Shown in pieces: positions 2,061 through 35,621 of a stretch of 64,000 nt of DNA. The translations under genes and the position numbers were made by a program. Under the pieces are notes generated by a model, which was not told where the DNA came from, ran no database searches, and saw nothing but the letters and a program-made list of their open reading frames with translations. Origin of the DNA: a virus; IMG/VR virus record IMGVR_UViG_3300044640_001517, positions 1 through 64,000 of that record; one strand, written 5' to 3'. Position 1 is the first letter of the stretch. Every line of letters starts with the position of its first letter.

Positions 2061-2072
2061 TACAATCAATCT

Positions 2073-2690: not shown

Positions 2691-2697
2691 GGACAGA

Positions 2698-3381: not shown

Positions 3382-3384
3382 CAT

Positions 3385-4032: not shown

Positions 4033-4033
4033 G

Positions 4034-6237: not shown

Positions 6238-6240
6238 ACA

Positions 6241-8678: not shown

Positions 8679-8715
8679 ATAAATATCGTATACATGGATA
8701 CACGCTTTCCAGTGA

Positions 8716-8721
8716 TATTAT
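8716..8721 (+). promoter_or_regulatory. -10 box of a leaderless promoter
   Basis: TATTAT lies six bases before ATG 8728, so transcription would start at or next to the start codon. No ribosome-binding site is present upstream of this ATG. No good -35 box is seen at 17 bases. Leaderless mRNAs of this geometry are common in actinobacteria. Confidence 0.45.
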
Positions 8722-8727
8722 GAGCCT

Positions 8728-9837: not shown

Positions 9838-9839
9838 TC

Positions 9840-10493: not shown

Positions 10494-10497
10494 ACAG

Positions 10498-11406
10498 ATG
10501 GAACCTGTCGATCTTGGCGGCGGAGTTTTGCTGTTTAGACGAGTTATCAAGATAGACCAAGATTTTTTGATTCCATATCTTGCGGATCTACATGAAAAAG
10601 CTGTCAGTGAAGACTTTACAGTAATCAAGGATGATGACGGCAAAGAACTGTACGCAATAAACAGATCCGGTCATCGCTATAATGTCGCGGATATCTATAG
10701 GGTAAATCGCATCATGGGATTTGCCACAGACGATGAAAACAGTAAACAACATAGATTTTTTAGTTCTTGCGAAGACGCAATCTACGCGTGCTTGCTGAGA
10801 TATATAGAAAGATTTCCTATGATACTGCCTTCGCTATGGTGGAGAACTCAGGGGCATGTTGTTGCGTACCGTGCAGGAAGCGACATGGGTCTTCATTCAG
10901 ACAATGACGTCAACTACCAACCAAATGCTGCACCTGATATGCAGGTTGCAACAAGACACGTGCTTGGTGCAATCATGTATCTAAATGACTCTGTTGACAT
11001 AAAAGATCAAATAGGCAAGTACGAATACACAGGCGGTGAGTTGGCATTTCAGTACTTAAACATAAAGTATAAGCCTAAGTCAGGTGACATCATTATGTTT
11101 CCGTCTAACTACATGGGTACGCATAGGGTAGAACCGTGCAGCGGTAATTCTCGATATGCGTATATAGCTTACTTTTCTCATGGATCACCTGATGAAAAGC
11201 GCGGGATCGGTCCAATGAATAGATCTACCAAGATACAGTCTGCCCAGGTTTGGATGCCAGAGGTGTTTGACGACTATGCAAAGTACATAGAAAAAAAGTA
11301 CGGAGATGATCTTGTAAATCACCCGCTTCTTACACTTCCTCTGAGTAGAATAAATAACAGCACTGGAACAATAGAAGAAGCGCTGGCCGAAAGAAACAAA
11401 GAATGA
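10498..11406 (+). CDS. P4H-like Fe(II)/2OG oxygenase, paralogue group A
   Basis: 302 residues from ATG 10498; an in-frame start at 10480 would overlap the methyltransferase gene. Iron ligands are H133 and D135 (GLHSDND) and H199 (GTHRVEP), with R209 for 2OG. Group A proteins share an N-terminal half (LGGGVLLFRR, a DDDGKELYAINRSG strand-turn, and a CLLRYIERFP...WWR..GH stretch) and then the oxygenase core YTGGELAFQYLNIKYKPKSGDIIMFPSNY. The C-terminal 65 residues extend beyond the core. Its stop overlaps the next group A gene as ATGA, suggesting tandem duplication. Confidence 0.82.
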   Translation: MEPVDLGGGVLLFRRVIKIDQDFLIPYLADLHEKAVSEDFTVIKDDDGKELYAINRSGHRYNVADIYRVNRIMGFATDDENSKQHRFFSSCEDAIYACLLRYIERFPMILPSLWWRTQGHVVAYRAGSDMGLHSDNDVNYQPNAAPDMQVATRHVLGAIMYLNDSVDIKDQIGKYEYTGGELAFQYLNIKYKPKSGDIIMFPSNYMGTHRVEPCSGNSRYAYIAYFSHGSPDEKRGIGPMNRSTKIQSAQVWMPEVFDDYAKYIEKKYGDDLVNHPLLTLPLSRINNSTGTIEEALAERNKE

Positions 11407-12266
11407 TATACAACGACGTGGACGCAGAACATCTAGGTGGCGGTATTATCGTTTTCCGCCGTGCAGTATCTTTTGACTCTCAATGGGCTGTTGAATTCGC
11501 TGAACAACAGATAAGTACAGAACGCGCTGAGATGTACACATCTACGATTGATCCTGAGACCGGCAATCCTGCGTACCTAAATAAAAGTGGATATGTGTTT
11601 GACGCGCGGGGGGTTGAAGAGATGCCTCGTCGCGGTTCGCAGATTCATAGAATTGATAGACAGGATGTCTTAGAATTTCTTGATTTTATTGAAGAATCAA
11701 AAGACAAGTATCTTCTAAAGTACTTTGTTAGGTTTCCTTTGGCGTACAAGAATGTTTGGTGGAAGGTAAAAGGACATCTGGTAAGTTACTCTGTGGAACA
11801 CGGTGGTAAGTTTCTCGGACCTCACTCGGACACAAGCGCCGACTACGCATATGGAATGCCTGAACCTGTAGATCAACTTGCAACACGAAACACAATCTCT
11901 TGCGTCGTGTACTTAAATGAAGACTTCATCGGTGGTCATCACTACTTCAACTATCTTGACATTGACTATGTTCCGCAGACAGGTGACATCTTGATGTTTC
12001 CATCTAACTATATTGCTGCGCATGAGGTGACCCCAGTTGTGTCGGGAAGTAGATATAGCTATCTCGGCTGGTATGCGCACGGGACTGCAAATCCAGTTGT
12101 CAATGAGCATGTTGTCGATCCAGCTTTGCAACCTGACCTGGCGAGAAAAGCCACCAACGTGTATATGCCGTCATTACGACAAGACCTAAAAGACTACCTC
12201 GATAAGATTGGTATCGACAAGTCTTCACATATTTACCAATTAGTAAGAAGCATGCACTCAACATGA
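11403..12266 (+). CDS. P4H-like Fe(II)/2OG oxygenase, paralogue group A
   Basis: 287 residues. H141 and D143 (GPHSDT), H207 (AAHEVTP) and R217 (SGSRYSY) form the metal and 2OG site. The N-terminal half repeats the group A pattern (LGGGIIVFRR, PETGNPAYLNKSG, YFVRFPLAYKNVWWKVKGH). YLNEDFIGGHHYFNYLDIDYVPQTGDILMFPSNY is the core; GGHH replaces the GGEL of its paralogue. It is translationally coupled to both neighbours by four-base overlaps. It is expected to be active; specificity may differ because the loop following the first His differs (TSADYAYG). Confidence 0.82.
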   Translation: MIYNDVDAEHLGGGIIVFRRAVSFDSQWAVEFAEQQISTERAEMYTSTIDPETGNPAYLNKSGYVFDARGVEEMPRRGSQIHRIDRQDVLEFLDFIEESKDKYLLKYFVRFPLAYKNVWWKVKGHLVSYSVEHGGKFLGPHSDTSADYAYGMPEPVDQLATRNTISCVVYLNEDFIGGHHYFNYLDIDYVPQTGDILMFPSNYIAAHEVTPVVSGSRYSYLGWYAHGTANPVVNEHVVDPALQPDLARKATNVYMPSLRQDLKDYLDKIGIDKSSHIYQLVRSMHST

Positions 12267-13006
12267 TAGTTACACACATGGGCAACGGAATAGTTAAGTT
12301 TGAAGACGCGCTTGCCATTGACAAAGAATATATGTCTGGGTTCTTTTCACGGCTCAATGGAGTTGATGTAAACTACGGCCAGATAATCGACGAAGAGCAC
12401 GTCCGCACTGAAGGCCAATACAAACTAAATCGTGAAGAGGTGAGTAAAGCACCTGTTCGATTCACTGATCTCTACAAATTGCAAGCCGCAGAAGACGTTG
12501 ACTTTATCTCAAAGATGCGAGACGCGATCCACGACTGCGTTCGTGCATATGCGCGCATCTTTCCAGTAGTAGCCGAGTGTATCCGCTGGGGCACGCATGG
12601 CTATGTAATTAGATACGAAAATGGCCAGTCAATTGGACCGCACTCAGACTGCAACATTGCGTACGAAGATGATGGAGTAACACCAATCAACACGTTTCCA
12701 ATGCAAAACATATTGACATGTGGTTTGTTTCTAAATGATGACTTTAGTGGCGGAGATCTTCACTTTCGTCCGTGGGCCATTACGGTAAAGCCAAAACCTG
12801 GAACAATTGTTATCTACCCATCTTCATATCTTGGCTGTCATGAAGTGTCTCCGGTAACTGACGGACAGAGACATGCATATCTTATGTGGTACGGACATGG
12901 TCCTATAGGTGGAATGAGTCATCGACCAGCAGACGATCTAAAAGATGTTGTCTCAAACCCTCAGCAGAAGTTTATACCTGTGGGACGGATTGAGTTGTAT
13001 GAGTAG
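12263..13006 (+). CDS. P4H-like Fe(II)/2OG oxygenase, short group A member
   Basis: 247 residues, the shortest group A paralogue. H127 and D129 (GPHSDC), H193 (GCHEVSP) and R203 (DGQRHAY) are intact. It keeps the ARIFPVVAECIRWGTHGYVIRYE stretch and the FLNDDFSGGDLHFRP core but lacks much of the N-terminal strand-turn and the C-terminal extension. Its 3' end overlaps the minus-strand oxygenase gene by 35 bases in tail-to-tail orientation, with no terminator between. It is the last gene of the 8728-13006 operon. Confidence 0.82.
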   Translation: MIVTHMGNGIVKFEDALAIDKEYMSGFFSRLNGVDVNYGQIIDEEHVRTEGQYKLNREEVSKAPVRFTDLYKLQAAEDVDFISKMRDAIHDCVRAYARIFPVVAECIRWGTHGYVIRYENGQSIGPHSDCNIAYEDDGVTPINTFPMQNILTCGLFLNDDFSGGDLHFRPWAITVKPKPGTIVIYPSSYLGCHEVSPVTDGQRHAYLMWYGHGPIGGMSHRPADDLKDVVSNPQQKFIPVGRIELYE

Positions 13007-14018
13007 TTCCATACTGCGTCACGCATCTATTCTGAAATACTGGATTTGACCCAAGTTCTAAACCTTCTGTTGGTTTAGACCAGATCGAGTACTGAGACTT
13101 GCAATAACGTTCGTAGTCATCGTAGATATTGTCAAACCACACCGGGGCGCACCAGTCGCGACTTTCTGAACTTTCAACTATACGAATGTTTGCTTCGTAG
13201 TCTTCTCCGCCTTGACCAAAGAATGTTAGGTATGCGTATCTAGTTCCACCATGCATCTGTGTAACTCCATGACTGCAGATGTAGTTTGTTGGGAAAAAGA
13301 TAATGTCGCCTTTCTTAGGCTTGTACTCAACATTTATATATGGAAACTTTAGACTTCCTCCGCAAAAGTTTTCACCGTTGAGCTCTTCCGGAGTGTCAAC
13401 ACAATCATTAAAATACGCAAGCGCGCCGGCAGTCTGCCGTGAGGCAACCATGCCTTTTGGCATGTATCGAACTCCGCCTGTAACTTTGTAGTTGGTGTCA
13501 TTGTCTTGGTGCCAGCCAAGCATACCGCTTCCTTCATATCGAAGAACATGACCACGCGTTCTCCACCACAGACTTCCAACGACGAGTGGAAACATATCAA
13601 CATAGCGAATTAAGCACTTATATATTGCGTCCTCAAGCGCAACAAAGTAGTCAACCATCTTTTGCGGTGTATGCGGTTGATCTACGGGCGCAAGCAATCT
13701 TGTCGGTGCATTTGGCACATCTTCAAGTCGATATCTAAATCCATCTTCGTTGATGCCGTATTCAACGCCGTCTTCGCCTATGATGTACTTCCAGCGCTCA
13801 CTTGCGACCTCAGCGACCCGCGCGTCAATGTGGTCAAGCGCAAACTTTTCTACACTAAACGCATTCTTGAAAACAATAAGTCCGTTGCCCAGATCTTCAT
13901 ATTCAAGATTTGATATCTCAATAATTGCGCTATCATCAATTACAGGGGTAGAAGGAAGTACCGGCACCTTCATAAACTCAAGGTGCTCTTCTGGTGTTCT
14001 TCTCATTTCGCTATTCAT
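12972..14018 (-). CDS. P4H-like Fe(II)/2OG oxygenase, paralogue group A, minus strand
   Basis: 348 residues from ATG 14018, which sits three codons before the stop of the upstream gene (eight-base overlap); the longer frame from 14081 would overlap by 71 bases. Ligands are H170 and D172 (GWHQDND), H250 (CSHGVTQ) and R260. Group A features are strong: GEDGVEYGINEDGFRYRLEDVP, AIYKCLIRYVDMFPL, WWRTRGHVLRYEG. Closest visible relative is the next gene (14011-15063), with which it shares the NDCxDxPEELNGEN insert, so these two are a recent duplicate pair. Confidence 0.82.
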   Translation of the reverse strand: MNSEMRRTPEEHLEFMKVPVLPSTPVIDDSAIIEISNLEYEDLGNGLIVFKNAFSVEKFALDHIDARVAEVASERWKYIIGEDGVEYGINEDGFRYRLEDVPNAPTRLLAPVDQPHTPQKMVDYFVALEDAIYKCLIRYVDMFPLVVGSLWWRTRGHVLRYEGSGMLGWHQDNDTNYKVTGGVRYMPKGMVASRQTAGALAYFNDCVDTPEELNGENFCGGSLKFPYINVEYKPKKGDIIFFPTNYICSHGVTQMHGGTRYAYLTFFGQGGEDYEANIRIVESSESRDWCAPVWFDNIYDDYERYCKSQYSIWSKPTEGLELGSNPVFQNRCVTQYGTTHTTQSVPQV

Positions 14019-15063
14019 CGAATTTAAGATACTTTGGGTCGATTCTTCCGCGGAGTTTGTTGATCTCGATTCCGTTTTCATAGTAGTACGGAATCTTTAG
14101 TCCTTCATCTCCTTCAAGTGCTCTATTCTGGAACACGGGATTTGGCTTTCTGTTTAGCTCATCTTCAGTCTTGCCAAACTCTTCTGTTATGCAGTACTTT
14201 GTGTAGTCATCATACAAGTTATCAATCCAATGCGCAGGTGACCAGCCTTTGCATTCGTGCGGTTCTACGATGCTAACGTTGTACTCTTCGTGACTACTTC
14301 CCTGCGAAAAGAATTCTAGGTAGCAATACCTGTTGCCCGCGATGACCCTGCGTACTCCGTGAGTTGCCACGTAGTTTGTAGGAAAGATGACGACGTCGCC
14401 AGCTTTAGGCTTTACCTCAATGTTTAGATATGGAAAGAATAATTCTCCACCTAGGTAGTTTTCGCCGTTAAGATCCTCTGGACTATCAGCGCAGTCATTT
14501 ATATAGACAAGCGCAGCGACAACCTGTCGCATCTGTGACTGCCCGTATGGCACATACCTACGTCCGCCAGTTGCGCGGTAGTTTGCGTCATTGTCATTAT
14601 GAATACCTAAAAAGTCTCCAGGCGCGTACCGAATAACATGTCCGCGTTCACGCCACCAGATTGTGCCGAGCACGAGAGGAAAATCGTGGATATACTTGAT
14701 TAGACACTTATAGATCTGATCTTCATAGTGATTAAAGACGTCAATCGCCCAATTTTCAGTGTTGGCATTTACGGGTTCAAGAACACGAACTGGCACTTCT
14801 TCTAGATGCTTCATTGAAAACTTGTTGCCATCTTCGTTTATTGCATACTTATTTCCGTCAGCGTCAACATCGTATTTCCAGCGCTGCTCAGTTGCCCGTT
14901 GTGCATTCTCATCGATCCACGGTATGATCTTTTCTTTTTGCGTATCTACGGCATTAGAATACTGAACCACCGCTCCACCAAGATAGGTAGGTTGAATGGC
15001 GAGTATCTCTTCAATTTCTTTTCTACCGATCTTCGGAGTAGATCCATCGAAGATGTTACGCAT
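14011..15063 (-). CDS. P4H-like Fe(II)/2OG oxygenase, paralogue group A, minus strand
   Basis: 350 residues. H155 and D157 (GIHNDND), H235 (ATHGVRR) and R245 form the active site. It has the group A N-terminal half (DADGNKYAINEDGNKF, QIYKCLIKYIHDFPL, WWRERGHVIRYA) and the NDCADSPEDLNGEN insert shared with its downstream duplicate. It leads a two-gene minus-strand unit from a divergent spacer of 39 bases, with a TAAAAT box seven bases before its ATG and no ribosome-binding site, which suggests a leaderless mRNA. The substrate is unknown. Confidence 0.82.
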   Translation of the reverse strand: MRNIFDGSTPKIGRKEIEEILAIQPTYLGGAVVQYSNAVDTQKEKIIPWIDENAQRATEQRWKYDVDADGNKYAINEDGNKFSMKHLEEVPVRVLEPVNANTENWAIDVFNHYEDQIYKCLIKYIHDFPLVLGTIWWRERGHVIRYAPGDFLGIHNDNDANYRATGGRRYVPYGQSQMRQVVAALVYINDCADSPEDLNGENYLGGELFFPYLNIEVKPKAGDVVIFPTNYVATHGVRRVIAGNRYCYLEFFSQGSSHEEYNVSIVEPHECKGWSPAHWIDNLYDDYTKYCITEEFGKTEDELNRKPNPVFQNRALEGDEGLKIPYYYENGIEINKLRGRIDPKYLKFDE

Positions 15064-19113: not shown

Positions 19114-19629
19114 TTATAGAACAGACTCTACGTAGCCGTCCTGATGTGGCCAGAGGTACGTATAGGTGTCGGGGGCAGAACCAGTATCTTCAGCCCAACC
19201 GAACTGTTTGTACCAGTCGTAGTTTTTGCATAGTAGTGCGGTGCGGTGAGTAGAACATAGGTCCTCGTAGTACTTTGCGTCTTGCATCCACGGCGGTAAT
19301 AGTAGATCAGAACTAATGCGACCTAGCGATACCGCCTTGTCATATGTGCGGTAGGTCTTATCAAGAAGTGTTGACTTGTACCCGCGTGAGATCCACTCAA
19401 AGTACGTTGCTGAGATGTACGAAACAAGCAATGTCTCGTAGCCTCGCCACATGCGAACTACGGGGTGATTTGACCAGCCCTTAGGATCTCGGTGGTTACC
19501 GTCTGGATCAAGATTACACATGTTGAGCAGGCACTGCCACGCCTCAAGAGTTTGCTTGTGCAGGCGCTTGTTGTCAAGATGCTGCGCCGTGAGCTCGAAT
19601 GATTGGGTGTTTGTAAGAAATGATTGCAT
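19114..19629 (-). CDS. Pyrimidine-dimer DNA glycosylase-like protein (Pyr_excise / MSMEG_6728-like)
   Basis: 171 residues from ATG 19629, which has AGGACGG upstream; the TTG at 19653 is an unlikely start. The opening MQSFLTNTQSFELTAQHLDNKRLHKQTLEAWQCL, then GWSNHPVVRMWRGYETLL, PPWMQDAKY and HRTALLCKNYDWYKQFGW, match the actinobacterial family related to T4 endonuclease V. That enzyme removes UV pyrimidine dimers; relatives may act on other damaged bases. A TATAAT box at 19659-19664 gives it its own promoter. Repair fits a sunlit-water lifestyle, which is inference. Confidence 0.75.
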   Translation of the reverse strand: MQSFLTNTQSFELTAQHLDNKRLHKQTLEAWQCLLNMCNLDPDGNHRDPKGWSNHPVVRMWRGYETLLVSYISATYFEWISRGYKSTLLDKTYRTYDKAVSLGRISSDLLLPPWMQDAKYYEDLCSTHRTALLCKNYDWYKQFGWAEDTGSAPDTYTYLWPHQDGYVESVL

Positions 19630-19658
19630 AAACCGTCCTGTGTCGTTTGTCAAGATCT

Positions 19659-19693: not shown

Positions 19694-20941
19694 TTATTCA
19701 GCCGGCGTAAGCCAGGTCTTCTTCGCGTAGCTACGGCTAAACCCTTTGTCCGTATCAAGTAACCACTCTCGTTCACCGATAAGCTCTCCTTGAGGACCAT
19801 TAGGTTGGCCGTCAAGCGACGCTTTTGCAGCATTGGCGATCCAGTTAGCAGCCTGCACAGCAACCGCCTTACCCCACGTCGCGCCAAGCATTGAGTAGTT
19901 ACGCGCATCTAAGAACTCCCAGCTATCAGGCAGTCCTTGAATTCGTGCGGCCTCACGGTGAGTAATTCTTCGCATAAGAGTCGGGTGGATCACATGATCT
20001 AATGCACCGCCGGTAAGAACGTGCGCCCATGAATCAGAAGGCCAACGGTGTGGCATTGAGAATCCCATGTAGTAGTCACGCGCTCGTGCCTTTTCTTCTT
20101 GAGCGAGCCATGACTGTGGGAATCGATCACCATTTTTCTCAACAGCAATCTTAAGTGCTTGACCGGCATCAATTCGAGCTTTCCAGCCGTCATTGCCGAT
20201 GATGTCAAAGATCTCTTGAATACGCACAGTGTCTTTGTTGTTCTTGTTCATGTGACCGTTTACGACGCCGCTTTCATTACGCAACGGTTGCGCCCACTTT
20301 GAAGCTTCTTTATTGTAGCGCTGTGGTTCCCACATGATCTCAAGATCTGTTAGATCTCCGATTACGTCCATGATCGTTGGAATTTCTTTCGGCATCAACG
20401 CCTGCGCACCAAACGGCATTCCCCGTTCTGCGGCAACCCAGAAGTATCGAGGACGATATGAGAATCCGCCAACCTGAAGGTTATTCATCTTTACATGGTA
20501 CAGGTCATATTCTTTACCTGAAAGTTCTTCAACCATCGTGCGATACTTCAGCATTGTGTCGCGTCCCTGCGTGTATGCCTGCTGTACACATTCAAAGATA
20601 ATAATTTTTGGTTTTACGCGTGCGGCATATTTCATGAAGGCGCGCGTGTGTTCGTGCGCTTTTGCGTCAGGTCCACGATTGTCCATACCTGACCAAACAG
20701 ACCAGCCAGAGCACGGTGGACAACCTACCACCATGTCGCACTTTGCGTCTGGCCATTCTGTTGCGTCATCAGAGAAAAATGCAGACCAGTTCTCGCCAAG
20801 ATGCTTGCGGTTTAGTTCGGCAACAGGATTGCCAAAGTTAAGTGTACCAACGCGGGCGGTCATATCTACTCCGGCATTTACAAATCCTAGACTTAGAAAT
20901 CCAGCAAGACCGTTGCAATCAACAAAAGTGGGGTTTGACAT
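19694..20941 (-). CDS. C5-cytosine DNA methyltransferase
   Basis: 415 residues. Conserved motifs in order: I FVDCNGLAGFLSLGFVNAG (6-24), IV VVGCPPCSGWS with the catalytic Cys of PPC (about 77), VI IIIFECVQQ (ECV instead of the usual ENV), VIII FSYRPRYFWVA, IX THREAARIQGLPDSW, X GATWGKAVAVQAANW. A target-recognition region lies between VIII and IX. GGAGAGAG precedes the ATG. No cognate restriction endonuclease gene is adjacent, so it looks like an orphan protective or hypermodification enzyme. Serine after the catalytic Cys and ECV are departures from the consensus. Confidence 0.85.
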   Translation of the reverse strand: MSNPTFVDCNGLAGFLSLGFVNAGVDMTARVGTLNFGNPVAELNRKHLGENWSAFFSDDATEWPDAKCDMVVGCPPCSGWSVWSGMDNRGPDAKAHEHTRAFMKYAARVKPKIIIFECVQQAYTQGRDTMLKYRTMVEELSGKEYDLYHVKMNNLQVGGFSYRPRYFWVAAERGMPFGAQALMPKEIPTIMDVIGDLTDLEIMWEPQRYNKEASKWAQPLRNESGVVNGHMNKNNKDTVRIQEIFDIIGNDGWKARIDAGQALKIAVEKNGDRFPQSWLAQEEKARARDYYMGFSMPHRWPSDSWAHVLTGGALDHVIHPTLMRRITHREAARIQGLPDSWEFLDARNYSMLGATWGKAVAVQAANWIANAAKASLDGQPNGPQGELIGEREWLLDTDKGFSRSYAKKTWLTPAE

Positions 20942-20969
20942 ATCTCTCTCCGTATGAGTAGGTGAGACA

Positions 20970-20975
20970 AATATA
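20970..20975 (-). promoter_or_regulatory. Possible -10 box TATATT
   Basis: TATATT on the minus strand, 28 bases before the methyltransferase ATG at 20941. A short inverted repeat AGGTT-gcag-AACCT (20983-20996) lies just upstream and might be an operator or weak stem-loop. No clear -35 box is seen. Confidence 0.3.
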
Positions 20976-21000
20976 TCCCGAGAGGTTGCAGAACCTGGTA

Positions 21001-21291
21001 CTACTTAGGTTCGCCAACCTCGTACCCGCACGCTGCGTATCCGGCAATATCAATCCACGTGTCTGGTTGAAACCCGGAGCGTGACGCGTATCGCGCAACC
21101 TTTACAGCAACCATCGCCATCGCGACATCTTCACGTGTAACCTCGATACCAAAGATCACTGACCAAAGCTTTGCGATTCGATCAAAGTTCTCTTCAGGTC
21201 CGCCGTACTGCGCGTCTCGAGCACCACTGATGATTGTCTGCGCCTCGTTTAGGCACTTCTCACGACCTTTAGTTGTCTTACTCAATTTCAT
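21001..21291 (-). CDS. DUF6378-like phage protein
   Basis: 96 residues. The pattern LNEAQTIISGARDAQYGGPEENFDRIAKLW, then VTREDVAMAMVAVKVARYAS and DTWIDIAGYAACG, is that of DUF6378, a small helical phage and prophage family that I recall as related to nucleotide-binding all-alpha folds, function unknown. It overlaps the upstream small gene by 14 bases. It lies next to the methyltransferase and dUTPase-like genes, so a nucleotide-related role is reasonable. Confidence 0.7.
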   Translation of the reverse strand: MKLSKTTKGREKCLNEAQTIISGARDAQYGGPEENFDRIAKLWSVIFGIEVTREDVAMAMVAVKVARYASRSGFQPDTWIDIAGYAACGYEVGEPK

Positions 21292-21478
21292 CTACCTTTG
21301 TTCGAACATAGACAGTGGCCTTGTACTCATGTGCCGAGTGCGCTTCAATGTGAAACTCTGTGTCTGACGGCAGCTCAACTTCATCGTTTTCACTGATCTC
21401 TCGCCACGAACGCAGTGCCTCTTCTTTGATCGACGACAATGTCGAACCGTACACCTCAAATTCAATTGATGCCCTCAT
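21278..21478 (-). CDS. Hypothetical protein, 66 residues
   Basis: Small acidic protein with strand-helix-strand character (ASIEFEVYGSTLSSIKEEALRSWREI...EFHIEAHS...YKATVYVRTKVDEIE). No family is recognised. It overlaps the downstream gene by 14 bases and the upstream gene by four, so it is part of the 22160-21001 operon. Confidence 0.6.
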   Translation of the reverse strand: MRASIEFEVYGSTLSSIKEEALRSWREISENDEVELPSDTEFHIEAHSAHEYKATVYVRTKVDEIE

Positions 21479-21684
21479 GCTATGACCATCTTTTCTAAAA
21501 CGTTAGGTGAGTGGTGAGTCTCTGAGAGAGACGGGGTTAGACCGTCGATACTGGAGACAATGACGTCACCGTCACGTATGTCAAGTACTTCACAGTATCT
21601 GCCGTTGTGGATTTCGCCAACAACTCCGCTGTACGAGTGCAGTTTTACCCGAACCATGTCACCTATGACTATGCTATTTGTCAT
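21475..21684 (-). CDS. Hypothetical KOW/SH3-like small protein
   Basis: 69 residues if started at ATG 21684, 14 bases after the upstream stop; ATG 21729 is in frame but overlaps the previous gene by 31 bases. The first part, IGDMVRVKLHSYSGVVGEIHNGRYCEVLDIRDGDVIV, looks like a small SH3/KOW-type beta-barrel. Such barrels often bind nucleic acid or mediate contacts. No closer family is recognised. Confidence 0.5.
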   Translation of the reverse strand: MTNSIVIGDMVRVKLHSYSGVVGEIHNGRYCEVLDIRDGDVIVSSIDGLTPSLSETHHSPNVLEKMVIA

Positions 21685-21698
21685 TACATCTGTCCATG

Positions 21699-22160
21699 TT
21701 ACTTGTGGGAACACTGCGCCTCCGGACATGTTGCTGTATCAAAGTCATCAAGTGCACGCGCGCATGACTGGCACTTCATACCTTCGGCCTTGACTACGTA
21801 GCCTTTAAGTTGACGTTGACGATTTACTTCCATCTTGTTTACGTAGTATGCGTCAAGTTGCTCGTCTGTTCCGCCTACGGCGCAGATGATGTTCGCCACA
21901 AAGTGCAAGACATCGACGCACTCTTTGACAACGGCCTCACGGTTTACATATGGGTCATCGTGTTGCCAGGGCTTCCACGAGATCTCCTTACGGATCTCAG
22001 CAAGCTCATCATCGATTGCAAGCATGTTCCAGCGTAGATACTCAATGATGTTATTGAGTGACTCTGGCGATTGACCTTCAAACTTGCTATAGTCAATCTT
22101 GTACGCTTCTGTTTGTAGTTTCTTGGTGTTACCAAGCCACTCGTTGAATAGTGTTCCCAT
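21699..22160 (-). CDS. dUTPase/MazG-like all-alpha NTP pyrophosphohydrolase with zinc knuckle
   Basis: 153 residues. Metal-binding motif is split as DDELAEIRKEISW (about 50-62) and EAVVKECVDVLHFVANII (about 75-92), the ExxE...ExxD arrangement of dimeric dUTPase and MazG enzymes. A C-terminal ribbon has CQSC and CPEAQC (about 130-150). Such enzymes hydrolyse dUTP, and in some phages dCTP, to the monophosphate. It is transcribed with the glycosyltransferases (ATG overlaps the upstream stop by one base). With the dCMP-hydroxymethylase-like enzyme, a dCTPase role like T4 gp56 is possible; the substrate cannot be read. Confidence 0.65.
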   Translation of the reverse strand: MGTLFNEWLGNTKKLQTEAYKIDYSKFEGQSPESLNNIIEYLRWNMLAIDDELAEIRKEISWKPWQHDDPYVNREAVVKECVDVLHFVANIICAVGGTDEQLDAYYVNKMEVNRQRQLKGYVVKAEGMKCQSCARALDDFDTATCPEAQCSHK

Positions 22161-23173
22161 TATTTTCCTATAAGTCTTTCCAGTTGAACTGTTAGTTCTT
22201 CTCGTGTTGGTATGCTTTTGACGTATTGCTGCTTTTGAGTTACTGATAATTCATATCGATCGATCTCTGACATCTCTTCAATTCCACTTGCAAGATGATC
22301 CCAAGCGTTTCCGATCTTCTTACTCTCACGCCAATCAGTTGCGATCGGAGTGCCGGCATTCAGTGCATGAACATATACCTGAGACCACCACGTCATCTTG
22401 TCGCCGTGAGGCCCGATGATCGCACCCATACTTGAATTGAGCGCATCGAACAGATCACTACTTGTTCTGGCTTTTGTCTCGCGGATTGACATTGCCGGAG
22501 TTGATAGTCCATCAAGTGCATTCTTTGTCCACCGCGTCTTGTCGTTATCAACGATCCAACGCTTTACACGCGACGAGTTGAAGTTTGCGTTTTCAGTGAC
22601 ATTAAATGAATCAAGGTTGATCCCAATCATCGATGAATAAGCGTTCTCCGGTACACCAGAAAACGTACTTGCATCGCCGCCCCAAGGTAAACGCGGATAT
22701 AGCGTCGCGGCCCACGGATCATTGCTAAGAAGCATGACAGCGTTCACGATGTGTTTGCGTATGTCTGCGTTTCCAGCAACCTGAAGATATCCCTTGCGCT
22801 TTGAGTAGAAGTCTTTGAACAACGTCTGACTGTTCTTTTCAATCGCCCTAAAGTTTGCAAATATCTTCCACGGCTCAGGTGCATCGATAAATGTCATGAG
22901 GCTATCTCGTCCCTCAAGTGTCTTGATCGCTGCAAGTGCACCGTATGCGGAGTTTGCTGTTACACTTAACGGAGGTGCGATTCCAACAAGAACCTTCTGA
23001 TACTGCTTAAGATCGCGCGCTGACCAACTAAGTGATGGCTCGGAGAATGTGACAGTATAGCCCATCTTCTCTAACACCTGCGACAATGCACCAGCAAACG
23101 TCAGTGATCGATTTGCGATCGATGACGAATACTGCTGCGCGGTCGTTCCGGTGATAAGTACTTGTTTACTCAC
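22160..23173 (-). CDS. GT-B fold glycosyltransferase-like protein
   Basis: 337 residues. An N-terminal Rossmann half (QVLITGTTAQQYSSS, VLEKMGYTVTFSEPSLSW, KVLVGIAPPLSV) and a C-terminal part with LFDALNSSMGAIIGPHGDKMTWWSQVYVHALNAGTPIAT (about 240-280), resembling the donor-binding loop of GT-B enzymes. Sequence similarity to named families is weak. It is coupled to the upstream GT gene by a four-base overlap and to the dUTPase-like gene downstream, placing it among nucleotide and DNA-modification genes rather than in the left-arm surface cluster. Modification of hydroxymethylated bases is one possible role. Confidence 0.55.
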   Translation of the reverse strand: MSKQVLITGTTAQQYSSSIANRSLTFAGALSQVLEKMGYTVTFSEPSLSWSARDLKQYQKVLVGIAPPLSVTANSAYGALAAIKTLEGRDSLMTFIDAPEPWKIFANFRAIEKNSQTLFKDFYSKRKGYLQVAGNADIRKHIVNAVMLLSNDPWAATLYPRLPWGGDASTFSGVPENAYSSMIGINLDSFNVTENANFNSSRVKRWIVDNDKTRWTKNALDGLSTPAMSIRETKARTSSDLFDALNSSMGAIIGPHGDKMTWWSQVYVHALNAGTPIATDWRESKKIGNAWDHLASGIEEMSEIDRYELSVTQKQQYVKSIPTREELTVQLERLIGK

Positions 23174-24423
23174 GAAAAAGCACTGTCAATCATCGCCTGT
23201 GCTGTCTTTGCTGGAGAATTCATCTCACGCAATAGGGCACGGTTGTATCTTGCAATCTCAAGACGCTCTGCGTCTGGAATTGCAAGTGATTCTTTGACAG
23301 ACTCTGCGATGCGCTTTGCAAGCTCAATGCCTTCTGGAAAGACAAGCTTCGCGTGTGTCGGCGATCGATCATAGTAATCAATGATGTTCATCTTGAACTC
23401 AGGGTCTGATAGGTGCTTAGGCGTAACACACATCGCGCCTGCCTCAAGAGCTTCCATCGTCGTAAACTCGCAGTGACCACTTGAGAAGTTGCCAGCCGTT
23501 AGGTTTAGGTGAACCCTAAAGCGCGAGTTTACAACAACAGGATCGTGATAGTTACCGAGGTAGCTGATCTCTGGCCCGTTTGGAACTTTAAGATCCCAGT
23601 GATACGGCGTGATGACATTTCCGTCTTCGTCAAATCCAGGTTTACCCATGTTCTCTGCCTTAAGCACAGCATGACGTTTTCCTGTCGCGCCAAAGTGTTC
23701 CTTGAGTTGCTCATACACGAGGTACGTAGGCGATGGTCCAAGGCCGATTGAGCAGGCTCCCCAGATCTCCATTCGTACGTCTTCAGGTAAGAACGCGCCA
23801 GCAACAGCGGCGAGTGGCTGTCCTTTGTTGTAAACAAATCGACCAGTGACGCCGACAACGTTGCCTGTTGGGATCTCGTCTTCAATGTTGTAGCGAGATA
23901 GGTACGGCAAACGCGCACGCACCCACTTCAATGATGCAAAGTAATCGTTTGCATCGCCTTCTGGGTTGTCGCGTGTTGTGACAAACGCAGCCGCGCGTGA
24001 CGGCGATTCAAGCAGTGCGCCAACAAAAGGAATTTCTTTTTGGATGTAAGGTGTGCCATGAAGCGCGGTTGTCCAGCGTGTCTTGGTCTTACGTAACGCG
24101 TCAACATAATCAGGCAGAACGTTTTCGCCCTCTTTCAACGCCGTTTTGTCATGTGCAAGTACGCGGATCTCAGGCAATACAACAAGATCATATGTGTCAA
24201 GTACAGCGACAAGATCGCGCGTCTTCACAACAACGTCGGGTGAGTCGCCCCACCAACGTCCGCCAGGTTGCGATGTTCCCCACGACTTGCGTGTCTTACC
24301 GCTCTTTGTGAAAGACACCACCTGGCAGTCATGTCCTAATTGTTCAAATCCTTGGCGAAGGTTAAATGCAAACCTTGTCGGTCCTTTGACCCCTGGCTCT
24401 GGCTCAAGAATTGCTACGCGCAT
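23170..24423 (-). CDS. GT4-like glycosyltransferase
   Basis: 417 residues from ATG 24423 with GGGAGAG upstream; the frame extends to 24477 but lacks a signal. It has a typical GT-B layout: VAILEPEPGVKGPTRFAFNLRQGFEQLGHDC, then TTALHGTPYI, GVTGRFVYNKGQPLAAVA (start of the second Rossmann domain, about 215), and SSGHCEFTTMEALEAGAMCVTPKHL (about 340-364), the ExFGxxxxEA-type donor-binding motif. It is coupled to the next glycosyltransferase gene. The pair sits with C5-methyltransferase and dUTPase-like genes, so DNA-base glycosylation is plausible but not shown. Confidence 0.75.
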   Translation of the reverse strand: MRVAILEPEPGVKGPTRFAFNLRQGFEQLGHDCQVVSFTKSGKTRKSWGTSQPGGRWWGDSPDVVVKTRDLVAVLDTYDLVVLPEIRVLAHDKTALKEGENVLPDYVDALRKTKTRWTTALHGTPYIQKEIPFVGALLESPSRAAAFVTTRDNPEGDANDYFASLKWVRARLPYLSRYNIEDEIPTGNVVGVTGRFVYNKGQPLAAVAGAFLPEDVRMEIWGACSIGLGPSPTYLVYEQLKEHFGATGKRHAVLKAENMGKPGFDEDGNVITPYHWDLKVPNGPEISYLGNYHDPVVVNSRFRVHLNLTAGNFSSGHCEFTTMEALEAGAMCVTPKHLSDPEFKMNIIDYYDRSPTHAKLVFPEGIELAKRIAESVKESLAIPDAERLEIARYNRALLREMNSPAKTAQAMIDSAFS

Positions 24424-29184: not shown

Positions 29185-31007
29185 AGGTACTTATCTCCCC
29201 AACACTCAAGCGGACCGTCAACGTCTGCTGTTAATGGAACTGCCCAACCTTCACGCGTTGTCATGCACTCGCGAACAAGTTTCTTGATCTCTTCGGCGTC
29301 CTTACGCGGAGCATTGAGCACAATTTCGTCGTGCACCGGAACGATAAGAAGTTCCGTGAGATCTGCTTGATCGAGTTTTACAAGGTTGCTCTTGAATACC
29401 TCGGCCGCGCCGCCTTGAATCAGATAGTTGACAAGTGTATACACACGGCCATCGTCACATGGAAGACGTCGTCCGGTCCAGGTGTATACATATCCCTGTC
29501 CCTCGGACTTAAATCTACGCATGCCAACGTCTTCAATCTGACGTTGGAAGTGACTCATTCCTGGGAATCGCGAGTCAAACGCGTCAGACACTGACTTCAT
29601 CTGTCCCTCAAGCACGCCGGCGGTGATCGCCTGCTTTGCAACACCTGCGCCGTATAGGCGACCGTAGACCATGCTCTTGATGAGGTTACGACGTTTATCA
29701 GACTTCTTCATCGTTGGATCTTCGTACACCTCGCGACCAATCTCCGTAAACGGATCTGATCCTGTAGCGTCAGCAAGATGAAACAGGTTTACAAGGTTTT
29801 GATCTTGTGAGAGACTTGCAAACATGCGGAACTCAACCTGATCGAGGTCCGAGGTGATGATTACATGGTCCTCGTCTTTTGGAATAAACGCGCGACGAAC
29901 GACGTCATCGCCTTTTGGCAACGTTTGAAGTGCTGGGCTTGTAATCGACATGCGACTAGTACGAGCACCGAGAGTACGGACAGACGGATGAACCACGCCG
30001 TCAATAGACTCAGTAAGGAAGTTCGAGAAGTATGTGTTGGCAAGTTTGTCGGCCTTTCGTTGTTTAAGTACTGTGTCAGCGAGGTTCTTTACCTCGTCAT
30101 TTCCGTCACGGAGAAGAATCTTTAGCTGATCCTTTGTGCAGGACTTCTGTCCTGTCGGCGTATACTCCGTGATCTCTGCGCCGAGACTTTCAAATAAACG
30201 TACAAGTTGAACGTTACTTGTGATTGACGTTCCGCTATAGGTTTGCTTTGCCCACGCCTTAACCTTCTCGGTATACGCAGTGAGTTCGTCAAACTTTTGC
30301 TTAGAGTAGTCGAGGTTTACACGTGCTCCATTCAACTCCATGCGCGTCACAATTTTGCGCGTCGCCATCTCGAGTTCATACGCTTTTTGGTACGGACCAT
30401 CAGGACCGCACTGCTTGTAGAACAACTCCCAGAGACGGGTTGTTAGCACACAGTCAAGCGCACCGTATGACCAATATGGTTGAAAGTTTGTTGGCACAGT
30501 TCCCCATGTCCAACCGTTCTTTGCAAGCTCAACGTCGAGTGTTTCCTGTAACGCAACCGCACGACTGTCAACATGCAATGCTGCAAGACGTTTTAGCGCG
30601 CCTGATCCTAGTGGATCGATGACGTGCGCCATAATCATTGTGTCATGCGCGCGGTGCCAAGGCATCTCCCAACGTGACTTGACAGCGAACCAACGAGCCT
30701 CAAACGCGATGTTGTGGCAGATGATCGGGCCGTCAAACTTATCCATCGCTTCATAAAATACGCCGCCCCACTCGTTCCACGGAATTGACCAACCCTGTTC
30801 ACCGTCGCCAACCTGCACAAGACGAAGTTGACCGTGCCACGGAGAGAACGCATGTTCACGCGGATTACCTGGAAGTTCTCCTGTTTCAGTGTCAATTGAG
30901 ATCGCGTCATACGGACGACGTTGACCTAGCCAATGAATGAAATCGTTGGCCTTCTGTGCTGAGTCAACGAGATGTAACTGAACATCTGAAAGATTATTGG
31001 TTGTCAT
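29181..31007 (-). CDS. Family A DNA polymerase
   Basis: 608 residues, similar to other compact phage Pol I-like enzymes. The N-terminal 3'-5' exonuclease domain has Exo I D39/E41 (SIDTETGE) and Exo II HNIAFEARW, where Glu103 stands where Asp is usual. The polymerase domain has motif A SDLDQVEFR (about 384), motif B RRNLIKSMVYGRLYG (about 436-450) with Tyr-Gly at the nucleotide-discriminating position, and motif C VPVHDEIVL (about 554). Tyr at that position also occurs in T7 polymerase. No 5'-3' exonuclease domain is present. It is the main replicative enzyme of the phage. Confidence 0.92.
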   Translation of the reverse strand: MTTNNLSDVQLHLVDSAQKANDFIHWLGQRRPYDAISIDTETGELPGNPREHAFSPWHGQLRLVQVGDGEQGWSIPWNEWGGVFYEAMDKFDGPIICHNIAFEARWFAVKSRWEMPWHRAHDTMIMAHVIDPLGSGALKRLAALHVDSRAVALQETLDVELAKNGWTWGTVPTNFQPYWSYGALDCVLTTRLWELFYKQCGPDGPYQKAYELEMATRKIVTRMELNGARVNLDYSKQKFDELTAYTEKVKAWAKQTYSGTSITSNVQLVRLFESLGAEITEYTPTGQKSCTKDQLKILLRDGNDEVKNLADTVLKQRKADKLANTYFSNFLTESIDGVVHPSVRTLGARTSRMSITSPALQTLPKGDDVVRRAFIPKDEDHVIITSDLDQVEFRMFASLSQDQNLVNLFHLADATGSDPFTEIGREVYEDPTMKKSDKRRNLIKSMVYGRLYGAGVAKQAITAGVLEGQMKSVSDAFDSRFPGMSHFQRQIEDVGMRRFKSEGQGYVYTWTGRRLPCDDGRVYTLVNYLIQGGAAEVFKSNLVKLDQADLTELLIVPVHDEIVLNAPRKDAEEIKKLVRECMTTREGWAVPLTADVDGPLECWGDKYL

Positions 31008-31504
31008 AGATATGTCGTTCCTTGAGGCGTGTCTCTGTCGATTGTTGTTACGAGTATTCCGCAGTTCCTGAGATATGTAACTGATGTCTCAGGATTGCGA
31101 TGCGCGTCCACTCCGCCTATTCTACATACAACTCGCTTGATTCCTGAGTTTGATATGAGCTTTGCACATTGCATACACGGAGGGCTGCTAATGTAGATAG
31201 TTCCACCCTCGCTCAACGAGCGATCTACATACAAAAGTGCGTTTGCCTCGGCGTGGATCGCAGGGCAGGCATCATACATATTGTCAAGTGGTGCAACGCC
31301 TTTTGCGCGATCGCACCAGTTGATGCACTCACCAGACTCTGGCCAACTTGCGGCAGGTCCATTGTAGCCTGTTGCGACGATGTGCTGATCGTGCGAAACA
31401 ATTGCAGCACCCATCTGTGCACGGGTACAGCGTGATCGTTTTGCTACGGCGTCAACGACCGCAAGCCAGGTATCGTCCCAAGACGGACGATTGTCACTTG
31501 CCAT
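31004..31504 (-). CDS. dCMP (deoxycytidylate) deaminase
   Basis: 166 residues from ATG 31504 with AGGGAA upstream; the longer frame to 31618 runs through the neighbouring small gene and is discarded. Zinc site: H84-A-E86 in PAIHAEANAL and C110/C113 in SSPPCMQC. The family converts dCMP to dUMP for dTMP synthesis, often under allosteric dCTP/dTTP control. It overlaps the polymerase start by four bases. Here it may also balance dCMP use with the neighbouring dCMP-hydroxymethylase-like enzyme. Confidence 0.88.
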   Translation of the reverse strand: MASDNRPSWDDTWLAVVDAVAKRSRCTRAQMGAAIVSHDQHIVATGYNGPAASWPESGECINWCDRAKGVAPLDNMYDACPAIHAEANALLYVDRSLSEGGTIYISSPPCMQCAKLISNSGIKRVVCRIGGVDAHRNPETSVTYLRNCGILVTTIDRDTPQGTTYL

Positions 31505-31670
31505 TCTGTTCCCTGTGGTTATTTGCCTCGTTGATTGTTCCGGCCATGATCCGAGCAAGTAGCTCAATCGCGTCGCGTCGTGAGAACCCAGCTGCCTTGA
31601 GCGTGATAAACAACTCATGCATGCTGATGGCCGCGTCTTTCATCGGTGAGTTGTACTCGTCTTTTGCCAC
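31494..31670 (-). CDS. Small hypothetical protein, 58 residues
   Basis: GTG at 31670 follows the stop of the thymidylate-synthase-fold gene by one base; the gene ends 11 bases inside the dCMP deaminase start. It reads MAKDEYNSPMKDAAISMHEL, then LKAAGFSRRDAIELLARIM, an amphipathic helical pattern with no frame problem. Small helical proteins with GFSRRDAxELL-like motifs are common in actinophage replication operons. No function is assigned. Confidence 0.65.
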   Translation of the reverse strand: MAKDEYNSPMKDAAISMHELFITLKAAGFSRRDAIELLARIMAGTINEANNHREQNGK

Positions 31671-31671
31671 T

Positions 31672-32532
31672 TTATTGTTCTTTCTTCTTGTTGTTCTCGA
31701 TCGCCTTTGCCATAACGTCTGTGTACCAACGTTCGGCAGGAGTTAGACGATCGCGAAGTTCTGTCTGATACACAGCCTTGAGTGCGATCAGCGCAGACGA
31801 TTCAACCTCGCGCCACGTACGACCTGTGATCTCTGGGTTCGCCTCGACCTTGTCTGTATACTTGAGTCCTTCCGCGGCTTCGTAGTGATCTGCGTAGATA
31901 TGCAATGATCCAACGTGATGTGAATATGTACCCGGTTCGATCTGCAAAATAGAACAGATCGCAAGCTGCGCACGTGAGAACTGAAAGAAATCGTAAGCTG
32001 CGCCAAGCCACACATCGTTTGATCGCATGTACACACTCATGTTGAGCTTGTTCTTGCGGATACGGAACTGGTGTAGCACTGTGCACGGATAGTCACGCTT
32101 GTTTTCTTGTGTATCGAGCTGTGGACTCCACATTGTGATTACGCCCTGACGGGTATCTGGGTCGCGCTTGAGACGCTCGATGATGATCTCATATTGACCT
32201 TTTGTCCGCGTACCGTATGAGCCGTGGAACATTCCGTCATCTTCGATGTAGTTCTTAAACTGTGGGCCGATGTCAATTACGAGTTCAGGAATACTTACGC
32301 CTGAGAGCAACTGCAGCGCCTCAACAGCACCGATACCTGAGACGGGGTTACGGTTCACATTGAGTGGAAGTGCCGCACGAATATCGTGGATATGAATTGT
32401 CGCGTCTTCAATCTCACGCGTCTTCATTCCACGAGGTGCAACCTCTTCGCCATGCTTAAGAACATGCTGGACAAGATCAACATAGCCGTTTACGCCGTCT
32501 TGAATCTCAATTGTCTTTATGGAAGTATCCAC
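31672..32532 (-). CDS. Thymidylate-synthase-fold enzyme, probably dCMP hydroxymethylase (T4 gp42-like)
   Basis: 286 residues. The nucleophile is C150 in DYPCTVLHQF and the phosphate-binding segment is MRSNDVWLGAAYD (169-181). The residue that is Asn in true thymidylate synthases (base-recognition Asn, E. coli N177) is Asp181. Asp at this place is the known determinant for dCMP in T4 dCMP hydroxymethylase. The next motif reads VGSLHIYADHY (207-217), close to T4 gp42 VGSLHVYSRHF and unlike the GDxHLYxNH of thymidylate synthases. It therefore likely forms 5-hydroxymethyl-dCMP, or 5-methyl-dCMP, using methylene-tetrahydrofolate. The dNMP kinase gene lies upstream and overlaps it. Confidence 0.75.
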   Translation of the reverse strand: MDTSIKTIEIQDGVNGYVDLVQHVLKHGEEVAPRGMKTREIEDATIHIHDIRAALPLNVNRNPVSGIGAVEALQLLSGVSIPELVIDIGPQFKNYIEDDGMFHGSYGTRTKGQYEIIIERLKRDPDTRQGVITMWSPQLDTQENKRDYPCTVLHQFRIRKNKLNMSVYMRSNDVWLGAAYDFFQFSRAQLAICSILQIEPGTYSHHVGSLHIYADHYEAAEGLKYTDKVEANPEITGRTWREVESSALIALKAVYQTELRDRLTPAERWYTDVMAKAIENNKKKEQ

Positions 32533-33515
32533 GGGTCTCCTTCTGTAGTTTCTTTATTTGCAAATCTTTCAAGTGCAAGTCCGTACTCTACCCGGTCATG
32601 GTGATGAAACCGGCGAACATACTGCGGGTGAGGTGCAACGACAATGTCTGCAGAACTTACTCCAGAGCGGAGTAGACGCTTCTCGGCCATTCGACCAAGC
32701 GCGACAATCTGCGGCTGCCCCAGTGCCATCCACAGTTCAATGAATCTCATGTTCTTGACGTCATCAGAGTTTACAACTCCTACCTCACGCCAGAGTGTCT
32801 CGGGTAGCGCCGATAATAGGTAGTCGCCAGAGTTTCCGTTATACGGCATGAACGGAAGTATTGTGCCGTCTTTGTTGATGCGATCATCGCCAACGAGGAG
32901 AGCCTTTGGCTTTACAGCTCCGATGTACTCTGGAAACTCGCGGAGAAACTCAGCGGCATATACCCGCTTTGTCGCGATCTCGATGAGCGCGGCTGCAAGA
33001 TTCGGTATCTCGTCCATGCTGTCCGGCTGCGGCGTAATTGTTCCGGCAAGACCGTGGGTAGATTTAGCAGCTGTCGCGTATAGCCCAATGATTGTTTCCA
33101 GATCTTGTTCAGTTACATAGTCATCGCCACGCCCTCTCAGACGCATCTGGATGACATCTAAGGGCTGGTAAAGCCAGAATTGGGATACTCCACGGGACGC
33201 CAAAACCATCTCAACCCAACGCCACCCAGGGATACCAAGCAGTCCGTAGTTATCGTTTATACAGGTGTGAGGACGCTTGAGCGGTGCATATGTCGCCTCG
33301 CCCCAGTGCCAGCGATCCGCCACCCAGTATTCATTTAAGAAGTCAGTATTTTCAATGCTGGCGCCGTACTCGTTTAGCACCCAAAGGCGAGATTCTTCTT
33401 GGGGACGACCTTGATGAATTGTGCGCACAGGTCCGCGTTCTTCGAGCTGTCGCGCAATCTCTGCGCATAGAGAACTTTTTCCAGAGGCGTCTGTGCCTTC
33501 TACTGCGATAAACAT
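32517..33515 (-). CDS. Thymidylate-kinase-like dNMP kinase fused to uracil-glycosylase-superfamily-like domain
   Basis: 332 residues. The N-terminal 190 are a P-loop kinase of the dTMP-kinase type: VEGTDASGKSSL (4-15), a DRWHWGE motif (about 68-74), and a basic LID RLRGRGDDYV. After about 200 a second domain reads ALLVGDDRINKDGTILPFMPYNGNSG, GVVNSDDV, VALGRMAEKRLL, and VAPHPQYVRRF, in the order of uracil-DNA-glycosylase motifs (G-E/D-x-P loop, Asn strand, VLLG, and H-P-S). Catalytic identity is uncertain. It may phosphorylate hydroxymethyl-dCMP as T4 gp1 does. AAAGGAC precedes the ATG. Confidence 0.65.
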   Translation of the reverse strand: MFIAVEGTDASGKSSLCAEIARQLEERGPVRTIHQGRPQEESRLWVLNEYGASIENTDFLNEYWVADRWHWGEATYAPLKRPHTCINDNYGLLGIPGWRWVEMVLASRGVSQFWLYQPLDVIQMRLRGRGDDYVTEQDLETIIGLYATAAKSTHGLAGTITPQPDSMDEIPNLAAALIEIATKRVYAAEFLREFPEYIGAVKPKALLVGDDRINKDGTILPFMPYNGNSGDYLLSALPETLWREVGVVNSDDVKNMRFIELWMALGQPQIVALGRMAEKRLLRSGVSSADIVVAPHPQYVRRFHHHDRVEYGLALERFANKETTEGDPWILP

Positions 33516-35620: not shown

Positions 35621-35621
35621 G

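What the first reader, a model, noticed from the sequence alone, without database searches (positions are those of the whole stretch)
19694..24423. C5-cytosine methyltransferase grouped with two GT-B glycosyltransferases
An orphan C5 methyltransferase with changed motif VI (ECV for ENV) lies in the same region as two glycosyltransferases and a dUTPase-like gene. Published phage pathways combine a C5 methyltransferase, a TET-like 2OG oxygenase and transferases to build complex cytosine modifications; this window has all three protein classes. It competes with the dCMP-hydroxymethylase route, and the two might even mark different cytosines.
Basis: inference. Interest (0 to 1): 0.6.

Follow-up and report, generated by a model that had tools for sequence, protein, structure and literature searches.

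The report
Methyltransferase-like enzyme tied to hydroxymethylcytosine synthesis
A phage enzyme that looks like an ordinary DNA cytosine methyltransferase belongs to a viral family whose cofactor pocket is rebuilt and which was always found alongside the enzyme that makes hydroxymethylcytosine, so it probably decorates that already-modified base rather than methylating plain cytosine.

Summary
Window 19694-20941(-) encodes a C5-methyltransferase-fold protein (Pfam 3.6e-25) with ECV for ENV. It lies beside two GT-B-type glycosyltransferase genes (22160-23173, shown by fold; 23170-24423, shown by motifs) and a dUTPase/MazG gene.

The proposed route (5mC, then TET, then transferase) is not supported. 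No window oxygenase reaches the TET/JBP cut-off; 25 of 28 records with the family have no TET/JBP match at E<=0.01.

ECV is one of several family-wide changes. In 46 family members, motif I Phe, motif IV Gln, motif VI Asn and motif X Asn (Lys in 46/46) are replaced; 73 ordinary phage C5-methyltransferases mostly keep them. Catalytic Cys, Glu and RxR are intact.

The family is tied to the dCMP-hydroxymethylase route rather than competing with it. All 33 long records with the family encode a thymidylate-synthase homologue with the dCMP-hydroxymethylase Asp, against 1 of 24 control phages. In three records (two lineages) the hydroxymethylase-glycosyltransferase cassette persists without the methyltransferase-like gene.

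Best reading: phage DNA carries glycosylated 5hmC, and the methyltransferase-like enzyme performs an extra reaction on 5hmC in DNA. Action on 5hmC and its chemistry are inferred. It fails the tests for a CmoX carboxymethyltransferase.

The parts
19694..20941 (-). C5-methyltransferase-fold enzyme with remodelled cofactor pocket (NGLAG motif I, PPCS motif IV, ECVQQ motif VI, GKAV motif X; catalytic C77, E117, R163, R165 kept)
   Evidence: Pfam 3.6e-25; family alignments; AlphaFold2 and Foldseek
21001..21291 (-). DUF6378 protein, cassette neighbour of unknown role
   Evidence: Pfam 7.2e-28; conserved neighbour
21278..21478 (-). small cassette ORF, no assigned family
21475..21729 (-). small cassette ORF, no assigned family, recurs in relatives
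21699..22160 (-). all-alpha NTP pyrophosphohydrolase (dUTPase_2/MazG); inferred dCTP/dUTP pool cleaner
   Evidence: Pfam 5.5e-12; PHROG dUTPase 1.5e-21
22160..23173 (-). GT-B fold glycosyltransferase, conserved partner (337 aa)
   Evidence: AlphaFold2 pLDDT 94.2; Foldseek best hits are GT-B glycosyltransferases; cassette conservation
23170..24423 (-). GT4-like GT-B glycosyltransferase (417 aa from ATG; ORF runs to 24477 from TTG)
   Evidence: E-x7-E and GR-x-x-NKG motifs; relatives match Glycos_transf_1 1.2e-6
31004..31618 (-). dCMP deaminase
   Evidence: Pfam 3.4e-18; PHROG 174 2.3e-43
31672..32532 (-). dCMP hydroxymethylase (thymidylate-synthase family, Asp181 in place of the TS Asn)
   Evidence: Pfam 2.4e-24; alignment to MilA CMP 5-hydroxymethylase and to thymidylate synthases; Asp invariant
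32517..33515 (-). P-loop nucleoside monophosphate kinase, inferred hmdCMP kinase
   Evidence: PHROG 761 thymidylate kinase 1.7e-9; always beside the hydroxymethylase

Best explanation
The genes form one cytosine-hypermodification system with two levels. Nucleotide level: the hydroxymethylase (31672-32532) makes hmdCMP, the kinase beside it helps make hmdCTP, and the deaminase and dUTPase/MazG enzyme (21699-22160) remove normal dCMP/dCTP/dUTP, so that DNA is built with 5hmC. DNA level: the two GT-B enzymes put sugars on the hydroxyl of 5hmC. The methyltransferase-like enzyme (19694-20941) is a further DNA-level step on 5hmC: it flips the base, its Cys77 adds to C6, and a reaction at the 5-hydroxymethyl carbon follows in a pocket rebuilt for something other than methyl transfer from AdoMet. 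My most likely version is loss of the hydroxyl and addition of a small, probably anionic, nucleophile held by Lys358. Shown: the genes and folds, the altered residues, the linkage to the hydroxymethylase, and that the GT cassette survives without the MTase-like gene. Inferred from family knowledge: hydroxymethylase and GT activities. Inferred only: action on 5hmC, and the chemistry.
For: 33/33 long records with the family have a TS-family protein with Asp at the dCMP-specific position; 1/24 for ordinary C5-MTase phages (Fisher 4.5e-15, not corrected for kinship). That Asp is associated with modified-cytosine contigs (PMC8670742). Replacement of motif I Phe (N/H/Q in 43/46; Phe 71/73 in ordinary enzymes), HhaI Q82 (S/A 46/46 against Q 70/73), N120 (C/S 46/46 against N 72/73), N304 (K 46/46 and 5/5 deep relatives, against N 60 of 65 unaligned-gap-free) while C, E, RxR are intact. 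Q82 and N304 are the conserved residues shortened in M.HhaI to accept bulkier transfers (PMC10666283). A C5-MTase can couple thiols to 5hmC in DNA (eM.SssI, PMC7176277) and M.MpeI acts on 5hmC (PMC11347137), so the chemistry exists as a side reaction. GT-GT-MazG cassette intact without the gene in L381, L384, L382. Sugar-supply genes in sister cassettes: nucleotidylyltransferase 1.3e-9 and GDP-mannose 3,5-epimerase 8.3e-87; UDP-galactopyranose mutase annotated in DSL-LC01.
Against: No measurement on virion DNA. Linkage to the hydroxymethylase may partly reflect shared ancestry of these phages; the control phages are of other lineages. Catalytic residues for ordinary methylation are intact, and AdoMet binding by a changed pocket is not excluded. 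The motif II acidic residue aligns poorly, so its loss rests on the HaeIII alignment. No small-molecule partner enzyme was identified. A full 5hmC replacement is assumed by analogy with T4.
Confidence: 0.5

Rival explanations
1. Ordinary AdoMet-dependent C5 methylation: the enzyme methylates residual or host-derived plain cytosines at a short motif, and the altered residues are tolerated drift.
For: C5-MTase fold and catalytic Cys, Glu, RxR intact; annotated as methyltransferase in all cultured relatives.
Against: Cofactor-side and C5-side residues are replaced by other invariant residues across 20-77% identity, which is not drift. A genome with full 5hmC leaves no C5-H to methylate. Linkage to the hydroxymethylase is unexplained.
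Confidence: 0.2
2. Dehydroxymethylation: the enzyme removes formaldehyde from 5hmC at chosen sites, restoring plain cytosine, for example where host polymerase or packaging enzymes need it.
For: [quoted passage not shown] Explains need for 5hmC and loss of the AdoMet signature.
Against: No reason for an invariant Lys and new invariant N-terminal residues if no second ligand is bound.
Confidence: 0.13
3. Carboxymethylation of cytosine like CmoX, with Lys in place of the CmoX Arg at motif X reading a carboxylated AdoMet.
For: Same position: SpCmoX Arg350 replaces HhaI Asn304, and engineered M.MpeI N374K carboxymethylates (PMC12783734); here Lys is invariant.
Against: CmoA absent from 28/28 records and no asparagine-synthetase-type ligase in 28/28. 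SpCmoX binds the cofactor adenosine with Phe25, Glu47, Phe48, Asp69; the motif I Phe is replaced here and the motif II Glu not seen. Does not explain linkage to the hydroxymethylase.
Confidence: 0.08
4. One reading: plain 5mC made by the enzyme, oxidised by a TET-like oxygenase and glycosylated by the neighbouring GTs.
For: All three protein classes occur in the window; Burke et al. 2021 describe such phages (cited in PMC11404850; paper not held).
Against: No Tet_JBP match above cut-off in this virus or in 28 records; GT cassette stays without the MTase-like gene; the 2OG cluster is near only 8 of the loci compared.
Confidence: 0.04

Closest known systems
C5-cytosine DNA methyltransferases (PF00145: M.HaeIII, M.HhaI, DNMT1)
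   Same: Fold, catalytic Cys-Pro context, motif VI Glu, motif VIII RxR
   Different: Motif I Phe, HhaI Q82, N120 and N304 replaced family-wide; invariant Lys in motif X; found only with a dCMP hydroxymethylase in the records tested
CmoX, DNA cytosine C5-carboxymethyltransferase of phage S-B43 (PMC12783734)
   Same: C5-MTase fold with a basic residue at the motif X Asn position; phage DNA hypermodification
   Different: Lys not Arg; no SPPC motif; adenosine-binding Phe missing; no CmoA and no asparagine-synthetase-type ligase in 28/28 records
T4-type 5hmC synthesis and glucosylation (dCMP hydroxymethylase, dCTPase, hmC-DNA glucosyltransferases)
   Same: Hydroxymethylase with Asp, dCMP deaminase, dUTPase/MazG-type pyrophosphohydrolase, kinase, GT-B enzymes
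   Different: T4 is not known to have a C5-MTase-like step (own knowledge); the GTs here are different families
5hmC carbamoyltransferase system of environmental phages (MetaGPA, PMC8670742)
   Same: Hydroxymethylase with Asp177 plus a DNA-level tailoring enzyme and a pyrophosphohydrolase and deaminase
   Different: Tailoring enzymes here are GT-B proteins and a C5-MTase-fold protein; that paper's text does not name DNA methylases

Membership tests
AdoMet-dependent C5-cytosine methyltransferase (PF00145) | C5-MTase fold and significant family match | tested here: met
   Pfam 3.6e-25; Foldseek DNMT1/MET1, HaeIII, HhaI
AdoMet-dependent C5-cytosine methyltransferase (PF00145) | catalytic Cys (motif IV), Glu (VI), RxR (VIII) | tested here: met
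   C 45/45 with a letter, E 46/46, R 46/46 and 46/46
AdoMet-dependent C5-cytosine methyltransferase (PF00145) | motif I FxGxG, motif VI ENV, conserved Q (IV) and N (X) | tested here: not met
   Replaced in the family; kept in most of 73 ordinary phage enzymes
AdoMet-dependent C5-cytosine methyltransferase (PF00145) | methyl transfer from AdoMet to cytosine C5 | not testable with these tools
   Needs purified enzyme
CmoX carboxymethyltransferase | Arg at the HhaI N304 position | tested here: not met
   Lys in 46/46 and 5/5; Lys works in engineered M.MpeI N374K
CmoX carboxymethyltransferase | SPPC motif | tested here: not met
   CPPC in most, NPPC or SPPC-like in a few distant members; GMA2 reads SPPC
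CmoX carboxymethyltransferase | CmoA in the genome | tested here: not met
   0/28 records
CmoX carboxymethyltransferase | associated amide ligase (CmoY, asparagine-synthetase family) | tested here: not met
   PF00733 0/28
TET-dependent 5mC hypermodification | TET/JBP dioxygenase in the genome | tested here: not met
   Window best 10.5 bits against cut-off 34.9; 0/28 over cut-off
dCMP hydroxymethylase (31672-32532) | thymidylate-synthase family with Asp for the substrate-specifying Asn | tested here: met
dCMP hydroxymethylase (31672-32532) | 5hmdCMP formation | not testable with these tools
   Needs assay or virion nucleosides
GT-B glycosyltransferase (22160-23173) | GT-B fold | tested here: met
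   Foldseek best seven matches at E<=0.001 are GT-B glycosyltransferases, TM 0.34-0.50
GT-B glycosyltransferase (23170-24423) | GT4-type motifs or family match | tested here: inconclusive
   E-x7-E present; relatives match Glycos_transf_1 1.2e-6, this protein only 0.056
5hmC-DNA glucosyltransferase (T4 alpha/beta type) | closest fold among T4 enzymes and activity on 5hmC DNA | tested here: inconclusive
   T4 enzymes not among the 50 best Foldseek hits; activity not testable

The most novel reading that the evidence does not exclude
A natural C5-methyltransferase-fold enzyme that no longer uses AdoMet: it takes 5hmC in DNA, uses the Cys-C6 adduct to expel the hydroxyl, and joins another small molecule held by an invariant motif X lysine, making a second, non-glycosidic class of 5hmC hypermodification.
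Probability: 0.27. Interest if true: 0.85.

Novelty: new variant of a known kind. Interest (0 to 1): 0.6.

Why it matters
C5-methyltransferases are annotated in phages as simple protection by methylation. A widespread actinophage family with the cofactor pocket rebuilt, and always found with hydroxymethylcytosine synthesis, would be a different step: tailoring of an already modified base. Coupling of small molecules to 5hmC by such enzymes is used as a laboratory trick; a natural version would give new DNA-labelling enzymes and a new phage DNA base. It is directly testable, because 13 cultured Gordonia phage records, DSL-LC01 and Kurnik carry the family.

Tried and rejected
TET/JBP profile on the window, whole virus and 28 records: none over cut-off. 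CmoA and asparagine-synthetase-type ligase: none in 28. The class I methyltransferase at 9840-10493 is not CmoA-like. Reading the reverse test as 12 of 25 hydroxymethylase phages lacking the gene was rejected: only G027/G028 (near-identical) and G031 cover the position; the rest are cut off, so 13 have it and 3 lack it. Two GT-selected records without hydroxymethylase (G081, G082) are truncated on the side where it lies. Genome collection scan found no bacterial member. GT profile search against solved structures by sequence found nothing for either GT. Model coordinates are not readable here, so the pocket could not be superposed on M.HhaI. GT alignment A9 was too diverse to search with.
Full report
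What is there. The window is bases 1-64000 of a 90,334-base viral record. The 337-aa protein has no sequence-family match, also when 36 relatives are scanned, but its confident model (pLDDT 94.2) resembles GT-B glycosyltransferases. The 417-aa protein has GT4-like motifs and relatives that match Glycos_transf_1. The GT-B claim is therefore right for the first by fold and probable for the second by motif.

The cassette is old. The nearest MTase is in Actinomycetia phage DSL-LC01 (67%), then 13 Gordonia phage records (33-35%) and Micrococcus phage Kurnik (34%). All keep GTs, MazG/dUTPase and the MTase-like gene in one run. In 56 MTase loci, the 337-aa GT family is in 45 and MazG in 47 (the printed 49 and 49 include 4 and 2 MTase-negative loci). 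Sister cassettes add sugar-supply enzymes: a sugar-1-phosphate nucleotidylyltransferase, a GDP-mannose 3,5-epimerase, and an annotated UDP-galactopyranose mutase in DSL-LC01. This fits GTs using several different sugars.

The MTase-like protein is not ordinary. ECV is one of several family-wide changes. In a joint alignment of 46 family members and 73 ordinary phage C5-MTases, the motif I Phe is kept by 71/73 ordinary enzymes and replaced in nearly all family members; HhaI Q82 is Q in 70/73 against S/A in 46/46; N120 is N in 72/73 against C/S in 46/46; N304 is N in 60 (8 gapped) against K in 46/46. Five deep relatives (about 20% identity) also have Lys. Catalytic Cys, motif VI Glu and both motif VIII Arg are kept. 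Other residues in the N-terminal, cofactor-side part are invariant instead (G37, N44, G49, W52, W63), so the site is rebuilt, not decayed. On a tree the Lys family and its deep relatives fall on one side of a branch from the ordinary enzymes (SH-aLRT 89; quick tree with some long branches). The fold is still that of DNMT1/HaeIII/HhaI. Q82 and N304 are conserved in C5-MTases and are the residues shortened in M.HhaI to accept bulkier transferred groups (PMC10666283).

It travels with 5hmC synthesis. All 28 long records chosen only for having the MTase family encode a thymidylate-synthase-family protein, all with Asp where thymidylate synthase has Asn (for Kurnik by spacing). The five deep relatives give 5/5. 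Long phage records with ordinary C5-MTases give 1/24, and that one also has Asp. Fisher p is 4.5e-15 for 33/33 against 1/24; it ignores kinship, so it is a description rather than a test. The linked lineages are as little as 20-40% identical in the MTase and differ in gene order, which argues against simple co-inheritance. The Asp marks cytosine substrates and is associated with modified-cytosine contigs (PMC8670742). The window's own hydroxymethylase aligns with the MilA CMP 5-hydroxymethylase.

The natural gene loss. In L381/L384 (near-identical) and L382, kinase, hydroxymethylase, deaminase, polymerase, two GT-B genes, (MazG in L381/L384), DUF6378, pyrimidine-dimer glycosylase and WhiB stay, and only the MTase-like gene is missing. 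Thus glycosylation does not need it. Of hydroxymethylase records in which the position is covered, 13 have the gene and 3 lack it.

What it does. Because 5hmC is made before replication, plain cytosine C5-H should be scarce, so an enzyme that keeps base flipping and Cys attack but rebuilds the cofactor side most plausibly acts on 5hmC. C5-MTases can couple thiols to 5hmC (PMC7176277), and M.MpeI action on 5hmC suggests loss of formaldehyde (PMC11347137). I favour substitution at the 5-CH2 over dehydroxymethylation because an invariant Lys and new invariant residues suggest a bound ligand. These last steps are inference.

Comparison. CmoX of phage S-B43 (PMC12783734) is the closest precedent: C5-MTase fold with Arg at the same motif X position, using Cx-SAM. 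The present family differs by Lys, by missing the motif I Phe, and by lacking CmoA and the asparagine-synthetase-type ligase in 28/28 records. It is not filed as CmoX. I searched papers for this family in Gordonia phages and found only general remarks that GMA2 methylases may protect DNA (PMC4524720). No bacterial member was found in one scan of 84,980 genomes, a pattern-based search that could miss distant ones.

Noticed in passing
window 1344-15063 and 34271-35653: About a dozen PhyH/2OG-FeII_Oxy_3-type (prolyl-hydroxylase-like) oxygenases clustered with GT-A glycosyltransferases, an AurF-like protein and a glutathione peroxidase. In related phages the same region holds collagen-like proteins and a tryptophan halogenase, so protein or surface decoration is a likelier role than DNA oxidation.
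   Followed up: partly
L146-L150 (deep relatives): A distant group with ESVQQ and motif X Lys but PRCT in place of PPCQ around the catalytic Cys, also always with an Asp-type hydroxymethylase.
   Followed up: partly
L002 15941-17038; L013 5741-7751; L094 8478-9491: Sugar-supply genes inside sister cassettes: annotated UDP-galactopyranose mutase; kinase-like, HAD-like and nucleotidylyltransferase trio; GDP-mannose 3,5-epimerase. The sugar on 5hmC probably varies between phages.
   Followed up: partly
window 19114-19653: Pyrimidine dimer DNA glycosylase (PF03013, 7.5e-14) conserved next to the MTase-like gene and kept when that gene is missing.
   Followed up: no
L203 (record G021), next to the hydroxymethylase: A helix-hairpin-helix DNA-glycosylase-like ORF and a thymidylate-kinase-like ORF flank the hydroxymethylase in a distant family member.
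   Followed up: no
L393 10456-11685 (record bases about 74255-75484): Ferritin-like domain fused to DUF5824 beside the portal gene.
   Followed up: no
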